Position numbers and translations under genes: made by a program | DNA from: a virus | Reading direction: 5' to 3' (one strand) | Length of the DNA: 64,000 nucleotides | IMG/VR virus record: IMGVR_UViG_3300050343_000122 | Location: 1-64,000 of that record | The notes under the pieces: model-generated | The model's input: only the letters and a program-made list of their open reading frames with translations | What the model was told of the DNA's origin: nothing | The model's database searches: none | Shown: one piece after another, positions 482-49,575 of the stretch | Layout of the letters: every line of letters starts with the position of its first letter | Position numbering within the stretch: position 1 is the stretch's first letter

Positions 482-3400
482 TTATCTTCTTCTCTTTTCT
501 TGGATGGTTACATCAAAATCTTTAGCGAATTCAGCATCAAACATAGCTATCCACTGTACCATAGACTTAGTTACAGGAAGCATTCTCATTCCCTGTTTTA
601 TAGGAAGAGCATCTTCTCTAACTTCTATTGGTCCTTTATCAAGATTACCAAATTCAATACCTGTAGTTTGTCTACTCATGTGTTGAACAAAAGTACTGAA
701 TTCTTTAAGCAAACTTAATGATGGTAATATACCTCCACTTAAAGTTGAACTCCACTCTGCTGGATTGTAAAAGAACATAAGTTCTTCATAGAATCTATTA
801 AAAGATTTTCTCATGTATCTATAAGAATTCTTTTCAGCTCTATCTGCATCATCATCTGGTTCAAAGAACCCTGTTACAAATAGCATTCCTTGGAGTGTCA
901 TAAGTATAAGAAGTTCTTGTAGTTGTTTTCTTGTATTCTGTCGTACCATTTCTATGAAGTCTTCTCTGGACATGTTTAATCTTTCTCCGGTTGTTTCTTC
1001 ATAAGACTTAGCGTACTTCTCAAACATTTGATCCATTTTTTCTAGACCTGCATCAGTTATATCATTACCAAATGCACCTATAGATATTAACTCCCTTACA
1101 CTTCTTAGTAGATTAAGATGAAGAAAGTTTCCAGCAAACAATCTAACTCTTCCTATGTCATACTTCTCTCCGGTAGTCATACCATCTTCTCCTACTCGTG
1201 TAGTAAAGTCATCACCTACTTTTCTGAACTCACTAAAACGTGTGTCTACAAGTTTAGGGATCCAACCTTTAAACACCATCATGGACTTAGTCCAAATATT
1301 CATGTTCATTTTAATTTGATCGAAGTCTGTAAAACCACCAGTAGCATTTCTAGCTATAGTTCTTGTAAGATTTGTAAGACGTTGAATCTCTTTTCTATTC
1401 TTTAAATCTAAACCTGGTACTACAACTTTACCATCTACAAGTTTTTGAGTGGCTGTAATAGATTTATTTTTCTTTAGTTCTTCAATCTCTTTCTTTATGG
1501 TATCCTTTACTGAATTATATGTTGCAGCATCCTTATATCTATCTTTATATTTATTTCTTACAAACTCTTTTATATTAATTAAGTTACCATCTATAACCAT
1601 GGTGTTATCTAAAAGAGTTTTGAATAGAGATCTTTCTAAGTGTAGTTCTGGTTCTCTAAAGAATGCAAACAATGTATCCTGTGCACCCATATCTAGTTTG
1701 GCAGACTTGGAGATAACAGAGTCTTTCAACTTTTCATAAGTAGGACTCTCTTTCAGTGGCATAAATATCTCTACCAACTGCTCGAACATATCTCTCTCTT
1801 CACCTTTACGCCATTTATTTCCTACAAGTTTCAGCTCATTAGCTGCAAACTCTCTAGCGTTGAAATAATTACCTGCTTGAGCTGCTACCTGTATGTTAGA
1901 ACCAAAAATGTTAACAGCACCAGACAGAGGTTCTAGACCTAAAGTCTTTGCTTGAAATGCATTATTAAGTGTTTGCATAAACTTAATAATAGAATAGTTA
2001 CTTCCTTTTTCTCCTACATCAAACAACTCTTTACCTGTTAATTGTTTAGCGATCTTATTTATTCCTGTTCTTAATCTACCAGTAGGTACACCAAAGTCTT
2101 CACCGTCTGCAGGGAACTGATTATCATACATGATTGTTTCCATAAACAGGTCGAATATCTTTGCATTATTTTCATTACCTTTCTCTATAACTGGTTTACC
2201 ACCTTCCATAGCAGTTCTTGAAAACCTGCCAGTTTTGTAGTGATCCTTAGCATGTACTATAGTTTTTACTAGATTCATCTGACCTTCTATATCACTCATG
2301 TACTTATACTTATTCATGTGATTGATATACAAGATTTGATTCTTAAAGAACTCTAACGATACATCAGTCATATCATTTGGTCCACCCTCAGAGTCTGCAC
2401 TAAAATCAAATGTATAGTATTTAGGAATAGCATTCTCAGTAGCTCCAGTTATTTCATTGATAGAACCGTATCCTATATCGTCTGCTCTTGCAGTTAATCT
2501 AGCTCCAAAATTCTTTACAGCACTCAGACTAAAATCCCATGCCATGCTTTCTGCTGTACCTTTACGTATAAAAGGTAGGAATGTACTTTGTACTCTATTA
2601 TCTAAATAACCTATGTCTTTAGCTTTTTCATTCATCTTTGAGATGAAGTTGTACAAATCTAGTAGGTCTGGATTCTTCTTTATTTCTTTATACTCTGTAG
2701 ATTCCCATTTAGATTGTGGATGTCTTTTAATTACATAGTTGTTCCATCCATTAAAATCATTTCTACCTATATCCCACTTACGTTTGGCTTCTAGTATAAG
2801 TCTATCTCTTAAAGCTTCATCATCGTATAGTTTGTTATACTTGTCTATTTCTCTTTTTAAAAGTTCATTAGCTTCTTTTTTGTAGCCTGCGATATCTATA
2901 CTTTCTTGTAAAAACTTTTTACTTCTATTGCCCTCTTCTGCATTTTGATCTATAGCATCATAAAAATCTCTAGAGTATTTATAGATTAATTTATTTACTA
3001 AGCCACCCTCTGTGTTTGTTTGATACAAAGGTCTTACAATATCTAATAGATTACCCCCTTGTTGTTTTAGTTTATCTCTAATTGCAAGAAGTTCATTAAC
3101 TTCACCAACAGAAGTTGCTTGTGCTTCTGATTGTGCAACTCTAGCTACCCTCGACAATATTCTTAAAGAAGGTAAAGGCAACTCAGATAAACTTCTAAAT
3201 GTAGACTTCAATCCTCGTAATAGTGTTTGAGGAGAAAGTAAACCACTTACATTATTCTTTAATCCTACAAACTTATCTGCAAATTCCCCACTTATCTTCT
3301 CTATCTCTCTTAGATTTCTACTTATTTGACGTGCTTTTTCATCTATGTCTTTTAAGTATGAAGCTTGTTCTTCCTTACTAAGACCAGAGTTTTTAATAAG

Positions 3401-5329
3401 TGGTTCTAGGTCTAAGTTAATTTGAGAAAATACTTTTCCTGTTTCTAGGTATTGAACTATTCTATCTGCATAGTCTGATAACTGTGCGTCCTCAAAGTCT
3501 TCAGCAGTAGGAGGCCTGTTCTTATATGTAGTTTCAAACTCTGCAATAAGGTTTTCACCTTCTGTTTGTTGCACAACCACCGCATCGATTAAAGGTGATA
3601 GGTTTTGATTTGCTTGTGCTTGACGTATGGCAGACTTTAGTATGTTAAGACGATCTCTTTTACTTGATCTATCAACCTCATCTGTAGGCTTTGTTTTTTC
3701 TATCTGAGTATAAACTGCATTTAATTTTTGAATAAGCTCATCTAAGTCTCTCACACCAGTAGTCTCAGTCTTTTCAGATACAGGAGTTAAAGTTAAAGGC
3801 TCAACACTTGAAGGATTAACACTTCCTATACCTATTCCAACAAACTCTAATGGAGACTTGCGATCTTGAAAGTTTTGTCTCTTTAAATTTAATAGTATAG
3901 GAACAGCTCTATTCTTTCCTATTTCTTTTACTCCATAGTTATCTTTTAAGATTTGCTTGTATGTACCAAGTTGTATACCATATGCTCCTTGTTTGTACCA
4001 TGCTACATCTTTTGCACCTTTAGCTACATTCATAAACTTCCAGTCATATATATGTGACTTTCCATCTTGATCTACAATCAGTAGGTCAATTGTGCCTGCC
4101 TCTTTATTCTGTTCATCATAAATCATGACTTCAGAAAACACCATAGGGTTTTTATTATTTTTAGAAAACTCTGCTATAAGATCTGTGTAATACTTTTCTA
4201 GTTTACTATAGACCTGAGCTTTCTTAACGTCTTGTATACTTGGTGCAGGACCTGGAACTTCCCTTCTCGTACCATCTGAGTTAAAGAATCTTCCATGTAT
4301 CTCTTCGAACATATCGTGAAACTCTACACCCAGTTGTCTTTTTAATTCATTATCTCTTTTCTCTTCTGCAGTAAATGATTTACCTCTAAACTTACTAGCG
4401 TACCATGCCTTTACTCTATCTGTAACTCTTTTTAATACTCGTTGATACTCACCATTTACAAGAACTTCATAATAGTTATTTGCATTCTCGTCATCTAGTA
4501 ATAAAGGATTAGCTTCTTTTGTACTCTCAACCTTCCTAAGACTATTCTTAGTAGCTATAAGTTTTTGCTGTATTGCCTTCTGTGCAGGGGTAATTGAAAA
4601 GTAAATTTCTTTTGCACTAGCATCAATCAGGTCTCCTTCTACACCCTCTGTTACTTGTTCTGCAGCTTGTTGAAATATGTCTAGATTAGATTGTGCATAC
4701 TGCCCTCTAAACCAATCTTTTATAGTGTTCCATATCTGTCTAAAAAAACTAGTGTTTTCTTCTTCTAGTGCAGCTGGATCACTTAGTTCGTTTAAGTTTT
4801 CACTTACTAGATATGTAATTAGTTTATCCGCTGCCTCTTTCTTTATCTTTCTAATATCAGGTCTACCGTTCTCTAACTGATAAACTGGATTGTCTCTATA
4901 TTGATCTAACGTATCTTTGTATATCTTAAATCTATCTATCTTAGATATCATCTGAGTAACTAGACTTGGGTTCTGTTGCTCTAGTATAGCCGTAGCAATG
5001 TGAACCATTTCCTCTGTAATGTCTATATCTGTTGCTCCTTCGCTTACAGCAATTATCTTTCCGGTAATATCAGCAATTGCATTAGCTGAACTAAAATCTA
5101 TTTCAGGGTTTTCCTTTGCATAATCTTGTAGCTCTACAATGTTTACACCCATCTTAGCTATCAACTCTTTTACTCTAGGAGTGATAGAATTAACTCCAGC
5201 TACATCTGTATATTCCTGTGCAGGAACATTACCATTGTAATTATTCCATAAAAAATATGCTCGGTCTTCTCCTTTAGCAGCAACTAATTGTTTCCACTCC
5301 GGTAAATTTATGTTAGGACATCTTGCCAT
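482..5329 (-). CDS. 1615-residue virion cargo-type protein with PD-(D/E)XK nuclease domain
   Basis: Residues about 330-435 carry a RecB/Cas4-like PD-(D/E)XK nuclease signature. A conserved His lies in GVEFHDMFEEIHGRFF, followed by an acidic residue near E400, then GTID with D415, a hydrophobic strand, and D429-W-K431 in the sequence IYDWKF. These are the usual metal-binding Asp and the catalytic Lys of motif II. The remaining roughly 1200 residues are Lys/Glu-rich helical sequence that I do not recognise. The start ATG overlaps the stop of the RNA polymerase gene by one base (TAATG), which implies translational coupling and co-production with it. Large multidomain proteins next to the polymerase are typical of crAss-like phages and are thought to be packaged and ejected. 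Attack on host DNA or processing of phage DNA is possible, but substrate and location are inference. Confidence 0.75.
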   Translation of the reverse strand: MARCPNINLPEWKQLVAAKGEDRAYFLWNNYNGNVPAQEYTDVAGVNSITPRVKELIAKMGVNIVELQDYAKENPEIDFSSANAIADITGKIIAVSEGATDIDITEEMVHIATAILEQQNPSLVTQMISKIDRFKIYKDTLDQYRDNPVYQLENGRPDIRKIKKEAADKLITYLVSENLNELSDPAALEEENTSFFRQIWNTIKDWFRGQYAQSNLDIFQQAAEQVTEGVEGDLIDASAKEIYFSITPAQKAIQQKLIATKNSLRKVESTKEANPLLLDDENANNYYEVLVNGEYQRVLKRVTDRVKAWYASKFRGKSFTAEEKRDNELKRQLGVEFHDMFEEIHGRFFNSDGTRREVPGPAPSIQDVKKAQVYSKLEKYYTDLIAEFSKNNKNPMVFSEVMIYDEQNKEAGTIDLLIVDQDGKSHIYDWKFMNVAKGAKDVAWYKQGAYGIQLGTYKQILKDNYGVKEIGKNRAVPILLNLKRQNFQDRKSPLEFVGIGIGSVNPSSVEPLTLTPVSEKTETTGVRDLDELIQKLNAVYTQIEKTKPTDEVDRSSKRDRLNILKSAIRQAQANQNLSPLIDAVVVQQTEGENLIAEFETTYKNRPPTAEDFEDAQLSDYADRIVQYLETGKVFSQINLDLEPLIKNSGLSKEEQASYLKDIDEKARQISRNLREIEKISGEFADKFVGLKNNVSGLLSPQTLLRGLKSTFRSLSELPLPSLRILSRVARVAQSEAQATSVGEVNELLAIRDKLKQQGGNLLDIVRPLYQTNTEGGLVNKLIYKYSRDFYDAIDQNAEEGNRSKKFLQESIDIAGYKKEANELLKREIDKYNKLYDDEALRDRLILEAKRKWDIGRNDFNGWNNYVIKRHPQSKWESTEYKEIKKNPDLLDLYNFISKMNEKAKDIGYLDNRVQSTFLPFIRKGTAESMAWDFSLSAVKNFGARLTARADDIGYGSINEITGATENAIPKYYTFDFSADSEGGPNDMTDVSLEFFKNQILYINHMNKYKYMSDIEGQMNLVKTIVHAKDHYKTGRFSRTAMEGGKPVIEKGNENNAKIFDLFMETIMYDNQFPADGEDFGVPTGRLRTGINKIAKQLTGKELFDVGEKGSNYSIIKFMQTLNNAFQAKTLGLEPLSGAVNIFGSNIQVAAQAGNYFNAREFAANELKLVGNKWRKGEERDMFEQLVEIFMPLKESPTYEKLKDSVISKSAKLDMGAQDTLFAFFREPELHLERSLFKTLLDNTMVIDGNLINIKEFVRNKYKDRYKDAATYNSVKDTIKKEIEELKKNKSITATQKLVDGKVVVPGLDLKNRKEIQRLTNLTRTIARNATGGFTDFDQIKMNMNIWTKSMMVFKGWIPKLVDTRFSEFRKVGDDFTTRVGEDGMTTGEKYDIGRVRLFAGNFLHLNLLRSVRELISIGAFGNDITDAGLEKMDQMFEKYAKSYEETTGERLNMSREDFIEMVRQNTRKQLQELLILMTLQGMLFVTGFFEPDDDADRAEKNSYRYMRKSFNRFYEELMFFYNPAEWSSTLSGGILPSLSLLKEFSTFVQHMSRQTTGIEFGNLDKGPIEVREDALPIKQGMRMLPVTKSMVQWIAMFDAEFAKDFDVTIQEKRRR

Positions 5330-8300
5330 TACTTACAAATTAGTTTAAATATTTCACCAGCTTGATCTTCTGTGTAACCTAAGTCAAGTAACATTGGCAC
5401 ATTGATTTCAGATATATTAAATTCTTTTGAGCCAGTTCTACCTAGTTGAACCATGTCACCTTTCTTAGCAAACATAAGTTTGTTAGGTGCGACAGATTGT
5501 GTAGGTGCAGTTCTTGTTTTTCCTTTATTATTAAATGCTTCTACAATTGATGAGTCATGCTTTTCATCAGCTTTTACTGTACCGTTATCAAATACTGATG
5601 GTCTAGGTCCAGTATAATATTCTTTAGCTCTATATCCATCTCCTAATGCATTGACATGTTTATAAACAAAATAAAGTTTTGGTTCACTCTCACCTTTTTT
5701 TGTATAGGAGTGTATAAAAGGGTCAGCAGTTGGGAGCATACTAATACTATTACCTCTTACCTTTTTAAATAGTCCTTTATTTATGAATGAATAATCTCCT
5801 TTGGAGGCCATCTCTTTTCTTTCTTTTGCATCAAAGTTTGGATTGTTCCAACTAAATGTAACAAGATCTGATTGTGCAGCTCTACTACCTGTACTTAATG
5901 TCATCACTTGAGGAATAGCTCCGGATGCTACAGAAGCTTTTACACCCTTTGGAAGATATGCCATTGCTGGATTATACACATACATACCGTTTTGTTGTTG
6001 TATCCACCTTGCTCTTTCTTGAGGTACAATTCCTGTGCTTGATTCCCAGTTGTTTCTCTCAAACATGTTCAAGGTATAGAAGTCATCTAAGGTATCAATT
6101 TTATCTAACCTAGACAAGGTTTGATTGTATATTTCTTGAAAGTCTTCATACGGCATTAAAGAAGTAAATGATATTTGTGAGTTATCTAGTCCGGACTGCA
6201 GTATACCTGTCACTATAATCTTTTTATAAAGAGCAGGGTCTATGTTTTGTTTAAGTTCACGAAACGCATATATTATGGTGTTCTGCTCATATACCTTTCT
6301 ATTATTATTCCTAAGCTTTATGTTGTTAGGAGTATCTCCAGAACGTTTTGATGGATCTGTTTCTAATAACTGAATTACCTGATTACCGTATAGTGGGTGT
6401 TTAGGATTTCCAAGTACCTCAGTAACAAATGATGCCACCTCACCTGCTGTACCATCGTTATCCACAAGCATAGTTTTTAGCATCATATTTAACTGTTGGT
6501 CTGTTTGAACAGCATAATCATATAAGCTGTTAACAGCTCTTCTAGACACTTTTATAAATTCACTATCTGGTAAATTTGTATAAGGTAGTAACACATTTTG
6601 TAATATATCTCTAGTAGTTGATTGATCTGATGTAAGCATTAAAGACATAGCTTCTCTTGCCTCTAACAATGATGACACAGTTTCTTTTAAGAATGTATTA
6701 TCTATAAGAGCCATAGCTGCAGACACTGACTCACCTTTATTATTCATTGCATAGAACACTGGATCAACCCTTTCTGTAAGAGAAATTGCTTTAGATAATT
6801 GTGCTTGTTTCTTAAACACTAAGTAAGGATCATTAAATGTTGTTGTATCCCAATTAGTTCCTTGTGTAAGTGTAAACAAGTCACGTGCTTGTTCTGCATA
6901 GCTTATAAATTCATCTAATATAAATCTTTGATACGCTTTTTCTTTATTGCTCATATTGGTTTTACCAAGTTGAGATCTCAGGTAATCTCTGAAAGGGAGT
7001 AGTTCAGACTCTTTCTCTGTTAGTTCTGAAGGACTTCCATATTTGTCTTCTTTCAGTTCATTAGCAAAGTCTTCAATAAATAACCAAGTATATCCACTCT
7101 CCTCAATTCTACGTAAATAATCTCTAACGATTGGTTGATTCATAAAGTAGGATACAGTGTCAACAGGTACACCAGCTTTAATTAAATACAACCAAGTAGA
7201 CGCTGTAGCAGGTGTCATACCTAGTTCTATAATCCACGGTCCTGCTGATATGTCTACCATACCATCTATTACCTGTCCATTTATATCAGATATAAAATCA
7301 CCAGCCGCATTCTTTACACCAGACAAAGACACTGCTTCTCCAACACCTGGTATATTTACAGTGTTCTTTCTTCTAAACTTTATTTGTTCTGGCTTTACAT
7401 ATAGTAGAGAATGTTGATTAAGAGCTAAGTTAGTTTGATTAACTGCAGCTATACCAATACCTCTTTTACCTTGAACAAATGCATTACGTAACCTAGACAT
7501 AAACCTTTTATCAAGTAAGTTTCCTATGTTACTGTAGTCAAATGCTCCTGTTCTAGTTTTATCCACAATCTCTTCTGACAATGCTTTTAATTGACTAGCA
7601 TCATTAGGAACAATAAGTCTTTCAAAGTTCTCAGGTAATGTAATAATATTTTCTGTAGACTTTATATACTGGTTCTCTAAAGATCTAGAATACATTCTAT
7701 CTACTACTGTTTGTCTGATTCCTTTTTCTTGAAGCTCAAACATGTAATCATCTATAACGTCTTGATTGTCAAAGGTTTCTCCAAAGATAGCTTCTATTAA
7801 CTCGCCTTCAAGTTCTCCAGACTCAAAGTCTTTTATTCTTTGAGCTAGTTCTTTCTGTTGAGCTTTATTAAGTAGTGCCCCACTGTCATACAGTTCTTCA
7901 AACCTTTTCTTAGCTTGATCACCATATCCATAGAAAGGTACTTCTTGTAACTTACCATTAACTACAACTGCATTCTTAAGATACATGAAAAGTTTATCAA
8001 TATCAAAATCCGATCCCACCTTCTCAACTATTGCTGCAGGAACTACAACATTATCTCCAAACTCTTTAGGTAAGAATTGTTTTATTCTTATAGCATCTAT
8101 AGAGTTTTGTTTCTGTGTAGGTATACGGAATGCTACACCGGTCAATAACTCTTGACCTTCTTCAGTGTTATTTAGGTAGTCTAATAGTTCTGCATCTGTC
8201 ATTCCCATGTTAGAGAACCAGCGACCCACCATAACCTCCATAACTCTTTTACCATCTGCATCTTCATAGAACTTAAGGACATCAGAAGTATAACCAGTCT

Positions 8301-11300
8301 TTCCATTGATAGTAGTCTTAGCTACACGATTAGACTCAAACAGAGAAGAAGGTATTTGCACCTTTTGTCCACCTGATATTTTAGGACGTATGATATTCTT
8401 CTGCACTATAGAGTATAAGATATTTCTAACTTGATTGTATGCAGGTGTGGCCTCTAATATAACATCACCCACTAAGAATCCATCAAGAGCAGAACTTATG
8501 TTATCATTAGTTTCTCTTTTAAATATCTCTTCACGCAAAGTTTTAGTAGCTGGAGCCATGTCTGTTAATTGAAGACCATCTGCTGTTTGTTTTATACCTA
8601 ACTTTTTAAACAACTGATCAAGACCTTCCTTGGTCATCTCATTAAGTAGCTCTGTGTTGTTGGCAACCTCTGCGTAAATGAGTGAAGCTTTCTGTTTTTG
8701 TTCTTCACTTAAACTAAACCATTGATCAAGTGTACCAGTGTAATCTATAGGTAGACCATTATCTAATAAATCTAGAGTTAACAATTTAGTAATTTGACTA
8801 GCAAGTGTAACTCTACCATCTTCTTTTGATGGTACCTCCGATTGTATGCTCATGATATTAAAAGGAATATTTACGATGTTATCATAAACAGCATCATTAA
8901 ATGACCCATCATCATTGTATGTAGCATGTGTTGGACCAGCCCCAACCTTTCTACCAGACTCAAATATAATATAGTCTATATCCTCTCTAAGCATTTTATC
9001 AAATAACTTCAGACCATTAGATCCAGGATTTACTTCTTTCATCACTCTGTATGACAGAGGATAAAGAGCGTATTTGTCTAATACTACATCATTTGTATTG
9101 TTGTAATCAAAGTTCTCATTTAGCCTAGCTCCAGATACGATAGGTTTCAGTGCTTTGTATGCACTTTGTACACGAGGATTACCTTCTTTTAAAAGATCCT
9201 GTTCAGCTATGCTTAATGTTTGGTTCTTATCTCTTTTATAAAAAGCAATGTCATAACGGAATTGTTTCTCTTCTGCATCATTCCAATCGTTAGCTCGTAT
9301 TCTTATTTGTCGATAAGATTTAAATCTAACAATACCACCACCATCAGTTTCTACCATCTCTTTATAATTAGGTAGATCTATTACACTAATCACATCTCCA
9401 TGAGTTACAGTTCTTAATCCATCTTTGGTAAACTGTGTAAACCCAGGACTAAATTTATCAAAGTCTCTATTCCATAATCTGTTTGCGGATGCATTCCAAT
9501 TAGGTGAATTAGATACTAGTGGTTGTCTAGGAGACAAGAAGCTCTTTGTACGCTTAAGCTCATCCTTATATTTGTATGGATCACCATAAAGAATCTTATG
9601 CATCTCTATGTTGGCAATAATATAATTAGCCTGTAGTACAATAAGTTTTCTATTCATATCTTGAATAGTCATATTAGTCATTCCTTGTACTCCATTTGCT
9701 GTGTACTTGTCTATGAGCTCTCCTGTTTTTTCGTTCTCTTGTTGTGTTATTACACCAAACCTCATTAAATAGTCAGCATACTGATCCTTACTATTTATTA
9801 CATAACTAAAGGTTCTGTCAACAATTTGATCTGCATGTAAGTCATACACCTCTTCAGCTGAAAGTGAAGAGTCTAATATATTTACTTTTATATCTTTATG
9901 AATTTCTTCCCCCAATATGTCTTTAAAGAATCTAAGATCAGTAGCATCTCTATCTCCTACTTTTGCTATAGCACGGTCCTCTCTAGCTAGATTAACTTCA
10001 GATATAAAGTATTCTCTCATTATAGTATTGAATACAACATTGTTTTGAAGTAAGTCTCTTTCGGTTATAGGGTTACCCATTTCTAAAGTGTGCTCTAAAG
10101 AAGAGTCTCCAGGGACAAGGTTCATGTATATACCACTAATGTTGTAATTTAGTTCTTGTCGAAGTCTATCAGGAAATTGAAGTCTACCTGATTTTTTAGA
10201 AGTGCCTTTTTGAGAGTTTAGTATACCACCAGCATATCCAGGTTTAAACAAGTTAAGCTTGTCTGTTCTCAAGTTACCTTCTCTATCATACATTGAGTTT
10301 AATATAACAGACCCTTGAGAGAATGCATCTGTAAGTAAATAAGCATAAGGTGTACTACCTAGTTCTTCCTTATTGCTGACAGATGTCATAAAGTTATGAA
10401 CTTCAGATGCTGCATTAGGTCCAATATATGTTTGAGCTCTTTGTCCTTCTATATTAATGTATGTACTACTTACCTCCGGATTAGCTATGTCTACTTTTAA
10501 CTCAGCTAAATTCAACAGACGTTTAGATAAGTCTAATGATTTAGTAGAGAATATTTTTAAATTCTTAGTATCCTGAATACTTTTCTTTATACCATTTACA
10601 GAAGAAGCAAATATTTTCTTTTGTGTTTGATTAAGTAATGCATACTCTTTTGAATTAAAAGGTATACCTAACTCATCTAAGAATCTAAACATATTGTTTA
10701 AGGTAGCTAAGGAGTATTTGCCCAACTTAACAGTATCAGGATTAAATACACCATCTGTTTCTTTGAATATACCGTTACCTTGTTTAGACTTAGTTACAAT
10801 AGAGTTTAGATACTGTTGTTGCATTTGTCTAGATGCTAAAGATAAATTAGCATCTGTCAAAGCAGTTTCACCGTTCTCTAAAACCATCACCATCTTAACT
10901 GAAGGATCTTGTAACTTGAAGGTTTTCCAAAGTGCAGTGGCTAATGTAAGCTCGTGTGTTTCATTAAGTGTTCTAAAATCAAATGTACCTTCACTAGCAT
11001 TTTGTTTTGTAATACGTTTATAAAGTGCATTGTAATTAGGGTCACTGATAGCTATAGATCTAAGTCTTTCTATCATGTCTTCCATGCTAGTGGAAGAAGA
11101 TAACTGCTCTAGTAATGTAATGTATACTTGTGTAGTTGGTAAAAGTTTAACACCGTTAATAGTACTAGGACTAAACCTTATGTCACCATTATCGTTGACA
11201 TTAACTATAGGAAGTGTTCCCATTAACAATCTTAGGGCTACATTAGTTTTCTTGAAGTTGTCTATTTGAGTTGCATCTAGATTAAATCCTTTGTTAGACA

Positions 11301-14300
11301 TGTCTTCAGAAGCCATACTCATAGCACCTTCATCAAAAGTAACTCCAAAGGATCTCATGTACTCTTTGTGTTTCTTTACAATATCAGGCCATGAAGTACT
11401 GATGTTCTGCATAAGAGAAACAGTGTCTTGCAGTCTTACATCTCTTTCTTCGGACTGTGGTAAAGACTCTAGAGTTTTTACTATTTGTGCAGTTGATGCT
11501 AATACTTCTCCTTTTAATCTTGTATATAAAACATCTTCATTAAGTAATGCATTCTTAATATTGAATAAGCTCTGATTGTTTTTAATTAAATCTCTAAGTG
11601 TGAGATATGTCATGTGCTGGATAGTGTCATGCGTAGCAACATCACTTAACCCTGCCACTCTAAACACAGCATTGTTTCCTGGTATTGCAAAGTCAACAGT
11701 GTTGTTTGAAATGTCTAGATTAAAAGGACCAAGATCTTCGTAAGATTCACCAAAGAATTCAAAACCACCTCCATCAATCTTGTTAAACAACTCATCAGTA
11801 TAAGTTTGTGACTGTGGACTAATAAACCATTTTTCAATAAGATCCTTTAATTGTTTAAATAATCTAGAAAAGAAACCACCTTCTGGTTTTTTCTTGTCTT
11901 GTATATAATCTCTAAAGTCTTCTGCTAACTGTTCTCTCATTTGATCCAGTGTAGCATCTTTATGCTTAACTGTTCTGCCGGTTGGTCTATCTACAAAGCT
12001 TCCTCTACGAGATTTAAACTCGTTAAATAGTTTCTCTTTTTCTTGAGGAAATAAGAATTGTGCAAAGACAGCTTCAAATGCTTCATGATAGACTGTACCT
12101 ACTTCTGCATTTTCATATACATATATACTATTGTTTTCAAAGAATCCCCATGCTTTTTTTCCACCTTTAGTTTTTATTACATTCTTAACTCTGTTGAAAT
12201 TAACACCAGGTAAATTCTTAGACATCCATGCTCTTGCATCTTTCCAGTTTTCCTCACTCATTGCTTCTACAGAATCAGTAATAACCTCACGTAGAACTTC
12301 ATTGTTCATGTTATTCTGACCACGCTCTAATGCAGCTTTAACATCATCATCTAGTTGCTGATCTTTAGATTTTTGTAACTCTGCAAATTGTTCAGGAGAA
12401 ATCTGAACTGACATTTCTGCTTCTTCTTTCTTAAGTTTTGCAAGAGTAGGACTAATATAATTATATACTCTACCTTTTATTTCATTTTTATCTTTACCAC
12501 TCTTTTCAACTAACGCTACTACTTCTGCTAAGTCACCTCCTTCAATGAACTGTATCTTCTTTTTATAGTTTGATATTGTAGTATCAGCAGGTGCTCTAAA
12601 GATTAACTTTTTACCTTCTGGACTAGTATATGTATTAGCAGTTTGACCATCTAATACAATACGTTCTGCATCAGGAGTCACCTTAATTACTTTACTAGTT
12701 TGTTGTTCTGTGTCAGCTGGTGGTACTTCAGATATAAAGTCTCCAGCACTATCTTCATTTACAAAGTATACACCTTTTCTATTAACCTCTTCGCTATCTT
12801 TTATAACAGGTCTCATTGTAGTATGTAGAGGAAGTTCGAAGTCTTCTCTAACACCACCCCCTGGAATATTTTTAGATAGTAGGTAGGTTTGATAGTTTGG
12901 CCAAACGATAGACTCTACATTTCCTTCCTCACTAACTGATGTGATTTGTTCGAACTCTTGGTCTAGTTTCTGTGTATATGCATTATCTATATTGTTATAC
13001 ATCTGCCCTAGAGTATCAATAATAAGTTGTTTACTTTTATCTAAACTAGCAGGTCTTAAATCTATTTTTGTGTTAGGTCCTATTTGTAAAACTAACTTAC
13101 TAAAAGATAAACCTTTTACAGTTGTGCTTTCTTCTCTTTCAAAGAACACACTATTCTGACCTGTGTCTTTTCTTTTACCCTGAGCATCTTTTGGTATACC
13201 CCAATAGGTAACACCTTTTAAGAAGTTCAACATTCTTACAGACATGTCACTATTAGCACCTTGATCTGGATCAACTATTTGTTTAGATAATGTATACAAT
13301 GCATCAAATATAGCTTCAGCCTCAGATGTAGTATGTCTCCTATTTCTAAGTTTTACATAACCATTAGGTAAATCTAAATACACACTACCTAAAGGTTGAC
13401 TATATGCAACTGTTCCTTTAAATATGTTCTTGTTTGTAGTAGGAATAAGTATGACTTGATCTTTAGATAGATCCTCTTCTGCAATAAGGTCTGCTTCTAC
13501 AACAGATGTAGCACTAAACACATCATTGCCTTTAGAATCTTTCTCATACTGAGGAATACCAAACGATGCTTCAATATTAAAAGGTGCACCTATCATAGTC
13601 CTGTCTAGAATACCTTTTCTGAATACACCGAACTGTTTTTTAATTTCAGCTGTTTCTGCATTCTCCTCTCTAAACAAACTACCTTTACTGTTTGTGAGAT
13701 TTGCTTCAGGTATAACTTGGTATATAGCATTGTCTAGCTTACTTTGATTTTCACCAATAGCTTGACCGTTCACATCTACTAGATTACCTGCAGCATCTAT
13801 CATCACCATGATAATAATACTGTCACCAAACTTATCCATAAGTTCCTGATTACCATCATCAAGTATTCTTTCAACTACACCATCTAGTAATTGATCTTGT
13901 GTAGCACGTGTAATATACACACCACGAATTTGATTTCTGTTTTCAAACTTATTTAAGTTTACTCCAAACCTATTAGCTCTAATATGATGATCTTGTACTT
14001 CACCTGCAGGTTGTCCTATACTAGCTCTTGGTACTACGTCATTAGACTTTTTAGGAATAGGACTAAATGACTTTGGTTCAGATTCTATAACAGGACTATT
14101 AGTTTGTGTATTTAATAGTTGAGCTTGTAATTTAAGATCCTTAGATAGTTTATCTTGCTGTGCCTGTTCTTGTGCATACTCATCTATTATTCTTTGAAAC
14201 CTATCTGCTATTACTTTCTTAGCCTTGTATTCTCCCCTTAGACTTTCCAGCTGCTCTTCAAGTTCCTTAATACTTTCCATAGCATCAAACACGCCTCTTT

Positions 14301-17300
14301 CTCCTACACTGGTATCTAATTGTATATCGTTAGTTAGATTAAAGTTTGCCAACTCTTGTTTGAGCAAAGGCCAGACATTAACTAAGTCTTCCCCTTTAGC
14401 AGCTTTATCTAAAAGCTCTTTCATATAATCACCATAATCTTGGTCAAATACATACGTGGTTTCTAGAGCACTTCTAAGTAACTTGCTTGCTTCTTTTGCA
14501 GCTTTAATTATTGCTGTTACTAACTTTTGATTTTCAGCTATTTCTTTCTTTACAGCCTTTCCGTTTTGTTCTAGTAAATTAATTTGATCTTTTAGTTCCT
14601 GTAAAAACTCTCCAGTATTTCCTGGTAGATCTAATAAGTCTGTTTCAAATGCTTCGAAATAAGATATGTTAAACTCCTGCTCTTCTTGTTCTTTAGACAA
14701 CTGTTGAATACGAAGTGCTGTATCATCTTGCATTTCTGTCAACTTGTTCAGAGCTCTTGTAAAGTTTTTCTGTGCCTTAGAATACTTTAATTTGATTCTA
14801 GGACCACCTTCACGCATTTCATATATAGCACTTATATCTTTGTTGACATCAGCTAACTTCTTCTTATCTTTTTCTAACTGTTTGTTTATCTCCTCTAGCC
14901 TTCTTTTAGATTCAACACCTAAGTCATTCATTATCTTAAGCCTGTTCTCTCTGTTCTGTGCAAGAGTTTGTTCGTTCTTTGCTAACTCTTCTGCAGACAG
15001 GAATTGAATAGTTGCATCTTTTTGAGATTGAGTGACAGTTCCTACTGGTCTTATTCTAGCTTCATTATATCCTTCTTGAGGTGTAAAGAATTTATTTGCT
15101 AATTGTTTTTTGAGGACTGTACCATTAGCATCTTTATATACAAACAATAACTTACCATTATCATACTGTAATCTTCCTCTTCTTTTACCACCAAAGTTCT
15201 TTCCGAAGTTAAATTCAAATATATTGTTTCTGTGTCTGAAGTAGAAGTTTGCGGTTTTATTATTATTTACTGTTTCAAAAGGTGCCACCTTATAATCTAT
15301 AAGTACATCAGGAGATATAGTTTTAGTTTCACCAGCTGGTGTTTTTATTTCTATACTACCATCTTCTTTCTTTCCAATAACAGTGAAGTTAGGAATTACC
15401 ACTGGCTCATCTAGTGGTGTATCTTTTAAGAAGTTTACACCTTGTCCTACAAAATATTCCTGTCCTGCTTGTAGAGTCTTTTCTCCATTCTTTGTTTGAA
15501 CAACTATGCTTTCAGTTACATCATTAATGTCCTGTGTTATATCTGTCTCTGCCGGTCTTACATCAAATTCCTTAGGGTTGGTTTTTATATCCTCGTACTC
15601 TTGGAGAAGTTCTTCTCTCATTTTAGCTATAGTAGCTACATCATTTAACTTTTGTCCTAGTGTATCTTTTGTGTCCGAAATTACATCTAGATTATTTATT
15701 TCCTCAACTGCTGCGTTAAAGCTTTCAGCCTTATTGTTTAATACATCTTGAATGATTGTGTTAACATCGATATTAGGCAATGCAGTTTGAAGTTCTTGTG
15801 TAAGCTGAGGTATACGTGTGTCAAAGTCTGTAATCATACTAGCTGTATATAACATCTTATCCATTACAGCTGGTCCGTATACACGTCTTTGTTTTCCATC
15901 TGGACCCTCTTCTGTTATACCTCCGTATCTCAAGTTTAAAGACTGGTAAAGACTTAATGTACTTTCAGCTGTATTTTTAAACCTCTGCATGCGTGCAAGA
16001 AATGCATCTCTAGTATCACCCTCTTGTATCTTACCCTCAGCCTGAAGTTGAGCAAACCCTTGTTCTGTTTGTGCTAAGTTTATAACATCTGCAATCTCTT
16101 GTTGCACCATGTCGTATCTTCCATACTTTATTCTAGGAGTTAGATAATTAACTATATACTGTAACTCTAGATTCTTGTAAGCTAACTCATCTCCCATACG
16201 AGCTGCTGTTTCTATTTCTTGCCCTATAACCCCTGCTCTATTCACAGCATCTATAGTACCATTTGTAAAATCAGAGAAGGTATAAGGCTTACCAGTGATT
16301 GGGTTTAATCTATTAAGTGCTTGTAATGCTGCTTGTGTATTAGATTCTCTTGCACTGTTTCTTCGGTATCTTCCTCTACCAGTCATTATAGAACCAGACA
16401 GTCCACCGATTAGTGCATTCTTAGCTCCCTCATCACTAAACACACCTTTGGTCACTGCTGCACCAGCTGAGTCTAACCAAGAGGTTGCTTCATTATTATA
16501 CTTCTTATTATAATAATCTTGAGATCCTACACTAGCACCAAACTGTCCCACCTCTTCTGCAGCTTCTGTAGCTGAAAAAAGGTAAGGTCTAATTTTATTT
16601 ACTCTGGCTAATACAGGATGTATCTTACTTACTTTCTCAGTATACTTACCACCTTTGTATACTATTTCATCTGTTTCTCTTACTAAGCTGTTGATCGCAC
16701 CTTTGTCTCCTTTATATGTGAAGCGTCCTATACGTGGAAACATAACGTAGTTACTTGCACTTAAGATTCCTACATTTGTCCAGAATGAAGCATTCCCTGC
16801 ACCATCAGCAGCATCATTAATTACTTCTAGTGCTTCAGAGCCTGGTGTTACTCCATACTCATCTTCATATTCTTTTATTAATTTATCTCTAAATTCATTT
16901 GAATTATGTAAAGCTTCAATGCCTGCCTCACCGCTTGTTGCAAGACCTGCAACTACAGCTCGTTGTCCTGGGTTTAATATATTATATTGTGTTAGTAAAT
17001 TATCAGACAATGCCTTCACCTCACCATACACCCCAGCTCCTTTGCCTGCAGCACTTAATCCTTTTTCTGTGGCTGCAACTGTCTCAGCAGCTTTACCTAC
17101 ACTAACTAATTTAGCTGAAGGTATTACTGATGTCATAGCTTTTGTTGCAAGATTTATACCTCTACTAAACACACCACCGGACGCATATGCACCTGCTGCA
17201 AATCCTAAGTTTTTAACTACACCATCCCATAAAAAGTTTCCTGTTAGTAAATAGTCAGGACTGTACCACTTAGCATCTCTTTCTCTTTGTGTATAATAGT

Positions 17301-17859
17301 TTGGAAACTGATCTTCTGACCACTTGTTAACTGAGTCAAGTTTTCTATTAAATTCATTATCATAGAATGAAGCAAACCTACCATCAGAGATTGCTTTATA
17401 TGTTCCGTTTACTAGCCCCACGGTACTTTGTAGAAATGTATTAACTGCAAGTATGGATCCTTTGGTAACACCATTAACAGCTTTACTACCAAAACTTTGA
17501 TACTTTGCAGCAAGCTCTTCGTTGTCCACACCCATAGAAGTTGGTTGGAAATAATCATACCTTCCAGATCCTTCATACTCATCTTGAGTTGTTATCCTAC
17601 TTCCTGCACCTTTATTACCAGGCCTTGATGTTTCTTGAATAAGATTGTTAAGTCCACCTTTTCTAGGTGCCATCATTGGACTACTAGGAGTATATTGAGA
17701 ACGACCTTGAAGATTAGAAAACATATTAGGAGGAGGGGTATACCCACCAAACTGTGCATCAAATGACCCAAAGTCTAACTGAGGGGTAATAGGACTTGTA
17801 GCCATTGGTGGTATGTTAACTCCTTGTTGAGCTTTTTTAAGATCTTTTTTACTTGCCAT
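5329..17859 (-). CDS. Giant crAss-like virion RNA polymerase polyprotein (4176 residues)
   Basis: D3284-F-D-I-D3288 within KVGSDFDIDKLF matches the metal-binding loop of the crAss-like phage RNA polymerase (established in Cellulophaga phage phi14:2 gp66), a double-psi beta-barrel enzyme related to eukaryotic RNA-dependent polymerases. Supporting elements are RPKISGGQKVQIPSSLF (K3166, probable first-barrel Lys) and GKRGIGIAAVNQ near residue 3470. I place the catalytic core at about 3100-3550. Earlier parts are an Ala/Gly-rich region (about 200-320), a Lys/Glu coiled coil (about 965-1250), and a zincin-like site H1925-E-A-F-E1929 followed by EQLAEDFRDY, in which the second zinc-binding His is replaced by Glu. 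The enzyme is expected to be packaged, ejected and to transcribe early genes. It is far longer than phi14:2 gp66 (about 2200 residues), so it is a fusion of several cargo modules. Gene extent is certain; roles outside the core are inference. Confidence 0.9.
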   Translation of the reverse strand: MASKKDLKKAQQGVNIPPMATSPITPQLDFGSFDAQFGGYTPPPNMFSNLQGRSQYTPSSPMMAPRKGGLNNLIQETSRPGNKGAGSRITTQDEYEGSGRYDYFQPTSMGVDNEELAAKYQSFGSKAVNGVTKGSILAVNTFLQSTVGLVNGTYKAISDGRFASFYDNEFNRKLDSVNKWSEDQFPNYYTQRERDAKWYSPDYLLTGNFLWDGVVKNLGFAAGAYASGGVFSRGINLATKAMTSVIPSAKLVSVGKAAETVAATEKGLSAAGKGAGVYGEVKALSDNLLTQYNILNPGQRAVVAGLATSGEAGIEALHNSNEFRDKLIKEYEDEYGVTPGSEALEVINDAADGAGNASFWTNVGILSASNYVMFPRIGRFTYKGDKGAINSLVRETDEIVYKGGKYTEKVSKIHPVLARVNKIRPYLFSATEAAEEVGQFGASVGSQDYYNKKYNNEATSWLDSAGAAVTKGVFSDEGAKNALIGGLSGSIMTGRGRYRRNSARESNTQAALQALNRLNPITGKPYTFSDFTNGTIDAVNRAGVIGQEIETAARMGDELAYKNLELQYIVNYLTPRIKYGRYDMVQQEIADVINLAQTEQGFAQLQAEGKIQEGDTRDAFLARMQRFKNTAESTLSLYQSLNLRYGGITEEGPDGKQRRVYGPAVMDKMLYTASMITDFDTRIPQLTQELQTALPNIDVNTIIQDVLNNKAESFNAAVEEINNLDVISDTKDTLGQKLNDVATIAKMREELLQEYEDIKTNPKEFDVRPAETDITQDINDVTESIVVQTKNGEKTLQAGQEYFVGQGVNFLKDTPLDEPVVIPNFTVIGKKEDGSIEIKTPAGETKTISPDVLIDYKVAPFETVNNNKTANFYFRHRNNIFEFNFGKNFGGKRRGRLQYDNGKLLFVYKDANGTVLKKQLANKFFTPQEGYNEARIRPVGTVTQSQKDATIQFLSAEELAKNEQTLAQNRENRLKIMNDLGVESKRRLEEINKQLEKDKKKLADVNKDISAIYEMREGGPRIKLKYSKAQKNFTRALNKLTEMQDDTALRIQQLSKEQEEQEFNISYFEAFETDLLDLPGNTGEFLQELKDQINLLEQNGKAVKKEIAENQKLVTAIIKAAKEASKLLRSALETTYVFDQDYGDYMKELLDKAAKGEDLVNVWPLLKQELANFNLTNDIQLDTSVGERGVFDAMESIKELEEQLESLRGEYKAKKVIADRFQRIIDEYAQEQAQQDKLSKDLKLQAQLLNTQTNSPVIESEPKSFSPIPKKSNDVVPRASIGQPAGEVQDHHIRANRFGVNLNKFENRNQIRGVYITRATQDQLLDGVVERILDDGNQELMDKFGDSIIIMVMIDAAGNLVDVNGQAIGENQSKLDNAIYQVIPEANLTNSKGSLFREENAETAEIKKQFGVFRKGILDRTMIGAPFNIEASFGIPQYEKDSKGNDVFSATSVVEADLIAEEDLSKDQVILIPTTNKNIFKGTVAYSQPLGSVYLDLPNGYVKLRNRRHTTSEAEAIFDALYTLSKQIVDPDQGANSDMSVRMLNFLKGVTYWGIPKDAQGKRKDTGQNSVFFEREESTTVKGLSFSKLVLQIGPNTKIDLRPASLDKSKQLIIDTLGQMYNNIDNAYTQKLDQEFEQITSVSEEGNVESIVWPNYQTYLLSKNIPGGGVREDFELPLHTTMRPVIKDSEEVNRKGVYFVNEDSAGDFISEVPPADTEQQTSKVIKVTPDAERIVLDGQTANTYTSPEGKKLIFRAPADTTISNYKKKIQFIEGGDLAEVVALVEKSGKDKNEIKGRVYNYISPTLAKLKKEEAEMSVQISPEQFAELQKSKDQQLDDDVKAALERGQNNMNNEVLREVITDSVEAMSEENWKDARAWMSKNLPGVNFNRVKNVIKTKGGKKAWGFFENNSIYVYENAEVGTVYHEAFEAVFAQFLFPQEKEKLFNEFKSRRGSFVDRPTGRTVKHKDATLDQMREQLAEDFRDYIQDKKKPEGGFFSRLFKQLKDLIEKWFISPQSQTYTDELFNKIDGGGFEFFGESYEDLGPFNLDISNNTVDFAIPGNNAVFRVAGLSDVATHDTIQHMTYLTLRDLIKNNQSLFNIKNALLNEDVLYTRLKGEVLASTAQIVKTLESLPQSEERDVRLQDTVSLMQNISTSWPDIVKKHKEYMRSFGVTFDEGAMSMASEDMSNKGFNLDATQIDNFKKTNVALRLLMGTLPIVNVNDNGDIRFSPSTINGVKLLPTTQVYITLLEQLSSSTSMEDMIERLRSIAISDPNYNALYKRITKQNASEGTFDFRTLNETHELTLATALWKTFKLQDPSVKMVMVLENGETALTDANLSLASRQMQQQYLNSIVTKSKQGNGIFKETDGVFNPDTVKLGKYSLATLNNMFRFLDELGIPFNSKEYALLNQTQKKIFASSVNGIKKSIQDTKNLKIFSTKSLDLSKRLLNLAELKVDIANPEVSSTYINIEGQRAQTYIGPNAASEVHNFMTSVSNKEELGSTPYAYLLTDAFSQGSVILNSMYDREGNLRTDKLNLFKPGYAGGILNSQKGTSKKSGRLQFPDRLRQELNYNISGIYMNLVPGDSSLEHTLEMGNPITERDLLQNNVVFNTIMREYFISEVNLAREDRAIAKVGDRDATDLRFFKDILGEEIHKDIKVNILDSSLSAEEVYDLHADQIVDRTFSYVINSKDQYADYLMRFGVITQQENEKTGELIDKYTANGVQGMTNMTIQDMNRKLIVLQANYIIANIEMHKILYGDPYKYKDELKRTKSFLSPRQPLVSNSPNWNASANRLWNRDFDKFSPGFTQFTKDGLRTVTHGDVISVIDLPNYKEMVETDGGGIVRFKSYRQIRIRANDWNDAEEKQFRYDIAFYKRDKNQTLSIAEQDLLKEGNPRVQSAYKALKPIVSGARLNENFDYNNTNDVVLDKYALYPLSYRVMKEVNPGSNGLKLFDKMLREDIDYIIFESGRKVGAGPTHATYNDDGSFNDAVYDNIVNIPFNIMSIQSEVPSKEDGRVTLASQITKLLTLDLLDNGLPIDYTGTLDQWFSLSEEQKQKASLIYAEVANNTELLNEMTKEGLDQLFKKLGIKQTADGLQLTDMAPATKTLREEIFKRETNDNISSALDGFLVGDVILEATPAYNQVRNILYSIVQKNIIRPKISGGQKVQIPSSLFESNRVAKTTINGKTGYTSDVLKFYEDADGKRVMEVMVGRWFSNMGMTDAELLDYLNNTEEGQELLTGVAFRIPTQKQNSIDAIRIKQFLPKEFGDNVVVPAAIVEKVGSDFDIDKLFMYLKNAVVVNGKLQEVPFYGYGDQAKKRFEELYDSGALLNKAQQKELAQRIKDFESGELEGELIEAIFGETFDNQDVIDDYMFELQEKGIRQTVVDRMYSRSLENQYIKSTENIITLPENFERLIVPNDASQLKALSEEIVDKTRTGAFDYSNIGNLLDKRFMSRLRNAFVQGKRGIGIAAVNQTNLALNQHSLLYVKPEQIKFRRKNTVNIPGVGEAVSLSGVKNAAGDFISDINGQVIDGMVDISAGPWIIELGMTPATASTWLYLIKAGVPVDTVSYFMNQPIVRDYLRRIEESGYTWLFIEDFANELKEDKYGSPSELTEKESELLPFRDYLRSQLGKTNMSNKEKAYQRFILDEFISYAEQARDLFTLTQGTNWDTTTFNDPYLVFKKQAQLSKAISLTERVDPVFYAMNNKGESVSAAMALIDNTFLKETVSSLLEAREAMSLMLTSDQSTTRDILQNVLLPYTNLPDSEFIKVSRRAVNSLYDYAVQTDQQLNMMLKTMLVDNDGTAGEVASFVTEVLGNPKHPLYGNQVIQLLETDPSKRSGDTPNNIKLRNNNRKVYEQNTIIYAFRELKQNIDPALYKKIIVTGILQSGLDNSQISFTSLMPYEDFQEIYNQTLSRLDKIDTLDDFYTLNMFERNNWESSTGIVPQERARWIQQQNGMYVYNPAMAYLPKGVKASVASGAIPQVMTLSTGSRAAQSDLVTFSWNNPNFDAKERKEMASKGDYSFINKGLFKKVRGNSISMLPTADPFIHSYTKKGESEPKLYFVYKHVNALGDGYRAKEYYTGPRPSVFDNGTVKADEKHDSSIVEAFNNKGKTRTAPTQSVAPNKLMFAKKGDMVQLGRTGSKEFNISEINVPMLLDLGYTEDQAGEIFKLICK

Positions 17860-39073: not shown

Positions 39074-39739
39074 CTATCTCACATCACTTCCACAACATTC
39101 GTCATAGATCCATGAAAACTCAAAGTCATCTCCAGACGATCCTACCCACTGAAGATCTTCAATAAAACATGGGTTTACTAATGTATTCCCTGATATCTCG
39201 TAGTTGCGTATTGATAATGTACCTTGATTACCGTTTCCATTATTTTGTGTGTTTATCATTTGTACAGTGTTTCTTAGAGTTATTATATCTGGATCAAAAA
39301 AGAACAACTGCATGTTGCTCAAGGGACAAAGAAAGTCTGGTTCAGTTATCACTAACGGTGTATTGCTAGCAACAAATATCGATCCCACTTGAGCATTTTG
39401 ATTTAGATCTAAATTCCCTATTAAGCTCCCATTTAGAAATACATCAAAATTGTCATCTCTTTCTGAGTTCTCATTACAAACCTGAAAGACAGTGACAGTA
39501 TTTGGACAATTTGGAGGTGCGTCTATTTCTCTATCTAGATAAGTATCACAGTCAGGACTAGTAGATATAATTCTAACTACAGCAGTTCCAAAAGGAACGT
39601 TATATGAAACAAATCCTGCAAGTAGTTGATTGCTTGTTACATCTACTTCAAAAGCTTCAGTAAAACCATCAACCTGAGAAAACAAGTTAAAAGGTCCAGC
39701 ATCTGCTCCTATGTTACTAGCTTGTATTAGTATTGCCAT
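39074..39739 (-). CDS. Fibre-type protein with N-terminal docking domain (221 residues)
   Basis: Residues 1-75 contain the docking-domain pattern seen in the neighbouring fibre genes: GPFNLFSQVDGFTEAFEV, then a VTSNQLLAGF strand, VPFGTAVVRI and a closing SPDCD. The remaining 145 residues are beta-type with scattered Cys, ending DECCGSDVR, and unlike any family I recognise. There is no Thr-rich linker in this copy. It is the last gene before the double-hairpin terminator and ends in TAG, while most neighbours use TAA. Role as a fibre or decoration subunit is inferred from the paralogues. Confidence 0.6.
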   Translation of the reverse strand: MAILIQASNIGADAGPFNLFSQVDGFTEAFEVDVTSNQLLAGFVSYNVPFGTAVVRIISTSPDCDTYLDREIDAPPNCPNTVTVFQVCNENSERDDNFDVFLNGSLIGNLDLNQNAQVGSIFVASNTPLVITEPDFLCPLSNMQLFFFDPDIITLRNTVQMINTQNNGNGNQGTLSIRNYEISGNTLVNPCFIEDLQWVGSSGDDFEFSWIYDECCGSDVR

Positions 39740-39753
39740 TTTATATTTTTATT

Positions 39754-40293: not shown

Positions 40294-40307
40294 TTTATAA
40301 TTTTATT

Positions 40308-41450: not shown

Positions 41451-41453
41451 ATC

Positions 41454-41705
41454 TTATGGTGTTGGTGTTGTTGTGGTAGTTGTAGTTTGTTCTAATACAA
41501 TATCAAAACTATTTTCACATAATGAATCTGACGTTACTCTTATTATAGTAGTAAAATCAGGAACTACAGTACTAGTATAGCCAGCTAATAAATTAACTTT
41601 AGTTACACCAGTTTCAAAAGCAGCAGTGAACCCATCTACATCTGAGAACAGATCGAAGGGTCCAGTATTGTTTCCTGCAGTTGTTAGTTTAATAAATGCT
41701 TCCAT
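41454..41705 (-). CDS. Minimal docking-domain protein with short Thr tail (83 residues)
   Basis: The gene is almost a bare docking domain: GPFDLFSDVDGFTAAFETG, VNLLAGYTSTVVPDFTTIIR, a Cys, then TTTTTTTPTP at the C-terminus. I use the ATG at 41705, which overlaps the upstream TAA (TAATG) and aligns with the paralogues. An upstream in-frame ATG at 41720 would add five residues inside the previous gene. It could be a short adaptor or the remnant of a fibre gene that has lost the part beyond its linker. Confidence 0.6.
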   Translation of the reverse strand: MEAFIKLTTAGNNTGPFDLFSDVDGFTAAFETGVTKVNLLAGYTSTVVPDFTTIIRVTSDSLCENSFDIVLEQTTTTTTTPTP

Positions 41706-42016: not shown

Positions 42017-42027
42017 TGTTTTTAGTA

Positions 42028-43164: not shown

Positions 43165-43188
43165 AATTTTATTTATTTGTTTATCACA

Positions 43189-46779: not shown

Positions 46780-46788
46780 ATCTATGTG

Positions 46789-49551: not shown

Positions 49552-49575
49552 CTTTATCTACAATTTTTGATTTTA

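What the first reader, a model, noticed from the sequence alone, without database searches (positions are those of the whole stretch)
5329..17859. A 4176-residue fusion carrying the crAss-like RNA polymerase
D3284-F-D-I-D3288 and K3166 mark the polymerase core, which occupies perhaps 450 residues. About 3000 residues precede it, with a coiled coil, an Ala/Gly-rich region and a degenerate zincin site. The known crAss-like polymerase from phi14:2 is about half this length, so this gene would deliver several functions as one ejected polypeptide, or be cut into parts.
Basis: partly seen in the sequence, partly recalled or inferred. Interest (0 to 1): 0.75.

Follow-up and report, generated by a model that had tools for sequence, protein, structure and literature searches.

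The report
Phage polymerase train with cysteine couplings
This giant phage gene joins two parts of the RNA polymerase that crAss-like phages carry into the cell, and across relatives each place where that polymerase is split into separate proteins is marked by one cysteine on each facing end, as if the pieces were hooked together like train carriages and pulled into the host in order.

Summary
The 4176-residue ORF is real (minus strand, 17859 to 5329). It fuses the leader cargo protein of crAss-like phages (crAss001 gp47 / phi14:2 gp67, with a zincin-like end) to the catalytic virion RNA polymerase subunit (phi14:2 gp66 / crAss001 gp50). The DFDID aspartates are invariant; the region matches PDB 6vr4 by profile (E 1.5e-40) and by predicted fold (Z 21). 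K3166 is not conserved. The fusion itself is ordinary: over 70 relatives and deposited Suoliviridae genes share it.

The unexpected result is a cysteine rule. This protein has one cysteine, C4175, next to last; the next protein (1615 aa) has one, C4. Across about 200 loci, leaders carry a terminal cysteine only at the C-end, middle subunits at both ends, last subunits only at the N-end. Six complete full fusions (5220-6405 aa) have none. Break and cysteine agree in 144/145 (N side) and 152/157 (C side) proteins, through at least 15 changes of gene structure. Controls: 3-4%.

Best reading: subunits are hooked head-to-tail by disulfides in the virion so that a leader pulls them through the tail; gene fusion replaces the hook. 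The rule is shown; the disulfide is inferred.

The parts
5329..17859 (-). 4176-aa fused cargo protein: leader (gp47/gp67-like) + catalytic virion RNA polymerase (gp66/gp50-like)
15550..17580 (-). leader domain, residues ~94-770; also found in crAss001 gp47, phi14:2 gp67, phi17:2 gp39, csAssE-Sib and a Leptolyngbya phage
   Evidence: tblastn; hhalign (E 2.3e-39 to crAss001 gp47)
11575..12312 (-). zincin-like domain, residues ~1850-2095, just before the fusion point
   Evidence: hhalign to crAss001 gp47 2073-2319 (of 2341), E 4e-11
12073..12087 (-). HEAFE (1925-1929), degenerate HExxH; HExxE in 17 of 22 aligned rows, HExxH in 5
5332..11508 (-). catalytic half, residues ~2118-4176, ortholog of phi14:2 gp66 and crAss001 gp50
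   Evidence: hhalign 2559-3674 to gp66 632-1749, E 2.7e-32; PDB 6vr4_A E 1.5e-40; Foldseek E 1.1e-23; VIA Z 21.1
7996..8010 (-). DFDID (3284-3288), catalytic DxDxD; D, F, D and D invariant in 65 of 65 rows
5335..5337 (-). codon of C4175, the only cysteine of the 4176-aa protein
482..5329 (-). 1615-aa last subunit, gp65/gp49 family, next link of the chain
5318..5320 (-). codon of C4, the only cysteine of the 1615-aa protein (MARC...)
17868..20624 (-). 918-aa upstream protein, probably ejection cargo, no cysteine; relative of a phi17:2 virion protein

Best explanation
The gene encodes the first link of the virion RNA polymerase train of a crAss-like phage: a leader domain, a degenerate zincin-like domain and the catalytic two-barrel polymerase fused in one chain; the 1615-aa protein after it is the second and last link. 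I propose that inside the virion C4175 forms a disulfide with C4 of the next protein, so that both leave the capsid as one head-to-tail chain of about 5800 residues, leader first, unfolded through the tail. The reducing host cytoplasm would then open the bond, the subunits would refold, and early genes would be transcribed. Other crassviruses do the same with two bonds (leader | catalytic | last subunit), one bond elsewhere (leader | catalytic+last), or none when all three are fused. Shown here: homology, polymerase fold and catalytic motif, and the cysteine rule with its covariation with gene breaks. Inferred: presence in this virion, disulfide formation, threading order, reduction in the host.
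For: Window: one cysteine in 4176 aa (C4175) and one in 1615 aa (C4); at most 2 cysteines in 5791 aa has Poisson P 1e-10 at a 0.5% rate. Modules defined by homology, not by cysteine: separate leaders N-Cys 0/41, C-Cys 42/43; leader+catalytic fusions N-Cys 0/78, C-Cys 75/76; last subunits N-Cys 144/145, C-Cys 1/138; catalytic+last ORFs C-Cys 0/16. Position of DxDxD in the ORF is bimodal; break against end cysteine agrees in 144/145 (N side) and 152/157 (C side). Complete full fusions L099 (6405 aa), L190, L193, L197, L212, L217 contain no cysteine at all. Tree: at least 9 and 6 changes of the two breaks; independent pairs go with the cysteine 6:0 and about 4:0. New breaks carry new pairs: L050 splits the 4176-type protein and has KKCKG* / MGVC; L029 has an extra 421-aa link with C3 and C420 only. 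The pair persists when genes are not adjacent: in crAss001 and cr85_1 the leader lies on the opposite strand from the catalytic gene. Same in phi17:2: gp39 C1957 only, gp38 C4 and C516 only, gp36 C3 only. Controls in the same loci: 3/96 at the N-end, 4/96 at the C-end. crAss001 virions contain gp47, gp49 and gp50, and disulfides hold its tail barrel together (PMC10172136).
Against: No bond has been seen; cargo proteins are largely unresolved in the crAss001 map (PMC10172136). Gut hosts are anaerobic and virions assemble in a reducing cytoplasm, so when the bond would form is unclear. Inner cysteines are not always absent: 46 of 80 leader+catalytic fusions have one, mostly at a recurring catalytic-domain site, and some Intestiviridae proteins have 7-14. 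A few proteins miss the rule, mostly ones cut short by introns or frameshifts (L172, L188, cr108_1), with their cysteine slightly further from the end (L185, L136), or called from the wrong start or code. No thioredoxin (PF00085) was found in this record.
Confidence: 0.62

Rival explanations
1. The facing terminal cysteines join the subunits, but not by a disulfide: for example two or more junctions share a bound metal ion, or the thiols act as a non-covalent docking contact.
For: The rule shows only which ends bear a cysteine, not the chemistry. Several copies of each cargo protein per virion (up to six estimated for the polymerase proteins, PMC10172136) could bring several pairs together.
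Against: One cysteine per end and no conserved His or second Cys beside it; the flanking end sequences are of many unrelated kinds, which fits a bare thiol better than a metal site.
Confidence: 0.15
2. The cysteines are separate anchors of each protein, to the portal, tail or membrane, and do not link neighbours.
For: Disulfides are used widely in the crAss001 tail (PMC10172136).
Against: It does not explain why the first protein lacks the N-end cysteine, the last lacks the C-end one, and complete fusions have none.
Confidence: 0.08
3. The terminal cysteine codons reflect an RNA or translation signal at the stop/start junction, not a protein function.
For: Many of the genes are nearly abutting (TAATG in the window).
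Against: Both codons are used (TGT 176/TGC 25 at N-ends; 160/33 at C-ends), the distance to the stop varies from 0 to 8 residues, and the rule holds where the genes lie on opposite strands (crAss001, cr85_1). It would not empty the rest of the protein of cysteine.
Confidence: 0.03
4. The 4176-aa product is a polyprotein cut in the virion or host, perhaps by the zincin-like domain, and works as ordinary separate subunits.
For: The zincin-like domain sits just before the fusion point, and L050 is naturally split in this region.
Against: The zinc motif is HExxE in this protein and most close relatives. No cleavage data; the domain model was too poor to judge.
Confidence: 0.2

Closest known systems
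phi14:2 gp66 virion RNA polymerase (PDB 6vr4) with gp67 and gp65
   Same: Same catalytic domain, DFDID, module order leader-catalytic-last; gp67/gp66/gp65 obey the same cysteine rule (C1797; C3 and C2179; C3)
   Different: Three separate genes there; here leader and catalytic subunit are fused
crAss001 gp47, gp50, gp49 (virion cargo)
   Same: gp47 is the leader, gp50 catalytic, gp49 last; all found in virions by mass spectrometry; same end cysteines
   Different: Separate genes, gp47 on the opposite strand; intact HEAFH zincin motif
Suoliviridae fused genes (cr50_1 4774 aa, cr55_1 4551 aa)
   Same: Zincin-like and catalytic domains in one ORF, C-end cysteine, last subunit with N-end cysteine
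   Different: Distant in sequence; annotated as DNA helicase or hypothetical
p-crAssphage (Carjivirus communis) gp44 and gp45
   Same: Same modules; gp45 ends SCM, gp44 starts MSC
   Different: Opposite fusion: catalytic + last subunit (4070 aa), leader separate
N4 giant virion RNA polymerase (~3500 aa)
   Same: Very large polymerase ejected through the tail, thought to unfold (PMC12633501)
   Different: Described there as a T7-like single-subunit polymerase; not compared here

Membership tests
crAss-like virion RNA polymerase (gp66 family) | DxDxD catalytic motif in conserved context | tested here: met
   GSDFDIDK; D, F, D, D invariant in 65 of 65 rows
crAss-like virion RNA polymerase (gp66 family) | Sequence homology to phi14:2 gp66 | tested here: met
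   tblastn E 1e-19; hhalign E 2.7e-32; PDB 6vr4_A E 1.5e-40
crAss-like virion RNA polymerase (gp66 family) | Fold of gp66 with two double-psi barrels in one chain | tested here: met
   Foldseek 6vr4_A E 1.1e-23, probability 1.00; VIA Z 21.1, 876 residues, next QDE-1 Z 4.0. Model mean pLDDT 70.8 and low near the motif, so the overall fold match is met but the barrels themselves are not resolved in detail
crAss-like virion RNA polymerase (gp66 family) | Packaged in the virion and transcribes early genes | not testable with these tools
   Shown for relatives (PMC10172136; PMC7886860)
crAss001 gp47 / phi14:2 gp67 leader family | Homologous N-terminal domain | tested here: met
   hhalign E 2.3e-39 to gp47, 5.3e-13 to gp67
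Zincin metallopeptidase | HExxH zinc motif | tested here: not met
   HEAFE here; HExxH kept in 5 of 22 aligned rows and in crAss001 gp47
Zincin metallopeptidase | Zincin fold | tested here: inconclusive
   Model mean pLDDT 62.7, no significant fold match
Order Crassvirales | crAss-type portal, terminase, capsid and transcription block | tested here: inconclusive
   PHROG portal, terminase and major head families match; capsid protein matches only a Leptolyngbya phage by tblastn; no family placement made
Cysteine-coupled cargo chain (proposed here) | Cysteine only at ends that face another link; none in complete fusions | tested here: met
Cysteine-coupled cargo chain (proposed here) | Disulfide between facing ends in the virion | not testable with these tools
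   Needs virion biochemistry

The most novel reading that the evidence does not exclude
Phages of this large group eject their polymerase as a covalent protein train: carriages coupled tail-to-head by single disulfides, pulled by a leader, and uncoupled by reduction in the host cell. Gene fusion and disulfide coupling are interchangeable, and phages in which this polymerase was not found (phi17:2) use the same coupling for other cargo.
Probability: 0.6. Interest if true: 0.95.

Novelty: new variant of a known kind. Interest (0 to 1): 0.85.

Why it matters
How a polymerase of more than half a megadalton in several parts leaves a capsid through a narrow tail, in order and in the right numbers, is open. 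A near-exceptionless sequence rule across crAss-like phages, among the most abundant viruses of the human gut, gives a concrete mechanism that can be tested with one gel. It would explain why these genes fuse and split so freely and why their products have almost no other cysteines, and would give a recognition sign for ejected cargo in unannotated phages.

Tried and rejected
Pfam and PHROG scans of the fused protein gave nothing significant, and a single-sequence PDB search gave nothing; the profile search was needed. K3166 as catalytic lysine: rejected. Zincin fold: model too poor, Foldseek uninformative. Cysteines explained by an RNA signal: rejected on codons, spacing and non-adjacent genes. 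Thioredoxin in this record as the uncoupling enzyme: none found. crAss001 gp50 as query gave two loci, the Leptolyngbya leader none. Paper searches for terminal cysteines or disulfides in crAss polymerase cargo found no such report; the gp66 structure paper itself was not in the library, so a mention there cannot be excluded. Short ORFs in the gaps of L010, L025, L031 and L051 looked like possible extra links but read as membrane proteins without end cysteines.

Full report
Observation. The ORF at 5329..17859 is on the minus strand, starts with ATG and has 4176 codons. The window is part of a 113,502-base virus record from IMG/VR. The downstream gene (482..5329, 1615 aa) starts within the stop codon of the fused gene, reading TAATG.

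What it is. tblastn against annotated phages matches residues 2745-3586 to phi14:2 g066, the catalytic RNA polymerase subunit (E 1e-19), and residues 115-763 to crAss001 gp47 (E 3e-20). Profile comparison with 22 aligned sequences lines the protein up with two proteins in order: 98-765 and 1849-2095 with crAss001 gp47 68-821 and 2073-2319 (of 2341), then 2559-3674 with phi14:2 gp66 632-1749 (of 2180). So it is the leader protein followed by the complete catalytic subunit, fused near residue 2100. The 1615-aa neighbour belongs to the family of phi14:2 gp65 and crAss001 gp49. Total module length is close to that of other crassviruses (phi14:2 1797+2180+1421 aa, crAss001 2341+2412+1349 aa, this phage 4176+1615 aa).

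Polymerase. The profile of residues 2560-3720 finds PDB 6vr4, the phi14:2 virion RNA polymerase, at E 1.5e-40. An AlphaFold2 model (mean pLDDT 70.8) has 6vr4 as its only significant Foldseek match (E 1.1e-23); VIA-align gives 6vr4 Z 21.1 over 876 residues, then QDE-1 at Z 4.0 and the P23-45 gp96 polymerase at 3.5, all two-barrel polymerases. In a 65-row alignment D3284, F3285, D3286 and D3288 are invariant, as are K2905, K2929 and K2971; K3166 is not. By analogy with other two-barrel polymerases one of the invariant lysines is the likelier second-barrel catalytic lysine; this is inference.

Fusion is common. Of 75 distinct relatives in IMG/VR nearly all have the leader and catalytic domains in one ORF. 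Deposited Suoliviridae genes have the same arrangement (cr50_1 4774 aa, cr55_1 4551 aa), p-crAssphage has the other fusion (catalytic + last subunit, 4070 aa), and a review mentions polymerase genes up to ~6000 aa (PMC10136315). Taken alone, the finding is a member of a known kind.

The cysteine rule. The 4176-aa protein has one cysteine, C4175; the 1615-aa protein has one, C4. In phi14:2 gp67 has only C1797 (its last residue), gp66 only C3 and C2179, gp65 only C3. With modules assigned by iterated profile searches rather than by cysteine, leaders and fused leaders have no N-end cysteine (0/41 and 0/78) but a C-end one (42/43 and 75/76); last subunits have an N-end one (144/145) and no C-end one (1/138). 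Where DxDxD lies in the ORF tells whether each break exists; the distances are bimodal. Break and end cysteine agree in 144 of 145 proteins on the N side and 152 of 157 on the C side. Complete fusions of all three modules, six complete ORFs of 5220-6405 aa, have no cysteine anywhere; in five of these the leader was judged present from length and not by the leader profile. In other ORFs of the same annotated loci the figures are 3/96 and 4/96.

Independence. On a FastTree tree of 164 catalytic cores the two breaks need at least 9 and 6 changes; in independent pairs the cysteine changes with the break 6 to 0 and about 4 to 0. Taken separately these reach p 0.03 and p 0.125; together they are consistent, but the two traits share branches. 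L050, a close relative, has the 4176-type protein split in two, and the new ends read KKCKG* and MGVC. L029 has an additional 421-aa protein with exactly two cysteines, C3 and C420. The end sequences themselves are of many unrelated kinds, while the cysteine stays. In crAss001 and cr85_1 the leader gene lies on the other strand from the catalytic gene and still ends in a cysteine, which argues against a signal in the RNA; so do mixed codons and variable spacing.

Wider. Cellulophaga phage phi17:2 shows the rule in gp39 (C1957 only), gp38 (C4 and C516 only) and gp36 (C3 only), with an unrelated 119-aa gene in between. In the survey gp39 matched the leader profile while no phi17:2 ORF in the stretch held matched the catalytic profile. 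The Leptolyngbya phage leader ends in C and the next 2748-aa protein starts MSNC with no other cysteine.

Mechanism. crAss001 gp47, gp49 and gp50 are in virions and probably stored in the capsid cargo zone; passage through the tail requires partial unfolding, and gp45 is thought to leave N-end first; disulfides hold the tail barrel together (PMC10172136). The simplest explanation of the rule is that the polymerase subunits are coupled C-end to N-end by disulfides, so that one leader pulls all of them, in order, and the links part in the reducing host cytoplasm. Other cysteines would allow wrong couplings, which would explain their scarcity. Gene fusion makes the coupling permanent and removes the need for it. 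The rule is shown; the bond, its timing and its reduction are inferred. Upstream cargo (918 aa) has no cysteine.

Limits. Nothing here shows the bond. Some proteins keep inner cysteines, especially in Intestiviridae and at one recurring catalytic-domain site. Exceptions are few and mostly interrupted, truncated or recoded genes. The structure paper of gp66 could not be read, so an earlier mention cannot be excluded; searches of open papers found none.

Noticed in passing
window 3911-4375 (minus strand), residues 319-473 of the 1615-aa protein: PHROG exonuclease match (phrog_298, E 1.5e-6); the sequence AGTIDLLIVDQDGKSHIYDWKF looks like a PD-(D/E)XK nuclease core inside the last polymerase subunit.
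   Followed up: no
L123 13380-13671 (cr108_1): The catalytic gene is interrupted inside the DxDxD motif (KAGSD / LYDIDKMY), probably by an intron.
   Followed up: no
L010 14548-15003, L025 12950-13411, L031 14550-15035, L051 14702-15154: A small membrane protein gene (EELIFR/EEVFFR motif, CPBP-protease-like by eye) sits between the fused polymerase gene and the last subunit in several relatives.
   Followed up: no
L029 16051-16722: A homing-endonuclease-like ORF (GIY-YIG look by eye) lies at the extra break of the last subunit, next to the 421-aa link.
   Followed up: no
catalytic domain, homologs of about residue 3204: One inner cysteine recurs in about half of the fused relatives (RVCEIMVGRWF) but is absent in the window protein.
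   Followed up: partly
L014, L021, L022, L032, L034, L081 and others, downstream of the last subunit: A family of proteins starting like MNVTCSAKTCPVILDSxCVFYEG, cysteine-rich at the N-end, follows the module in many relatives.
   Followed up: no
window 39500-51000: Several related short DNA repeats among probable fibre genes (matches of roughly 35-100 bases at 71-91% identity).
   Followed up: no
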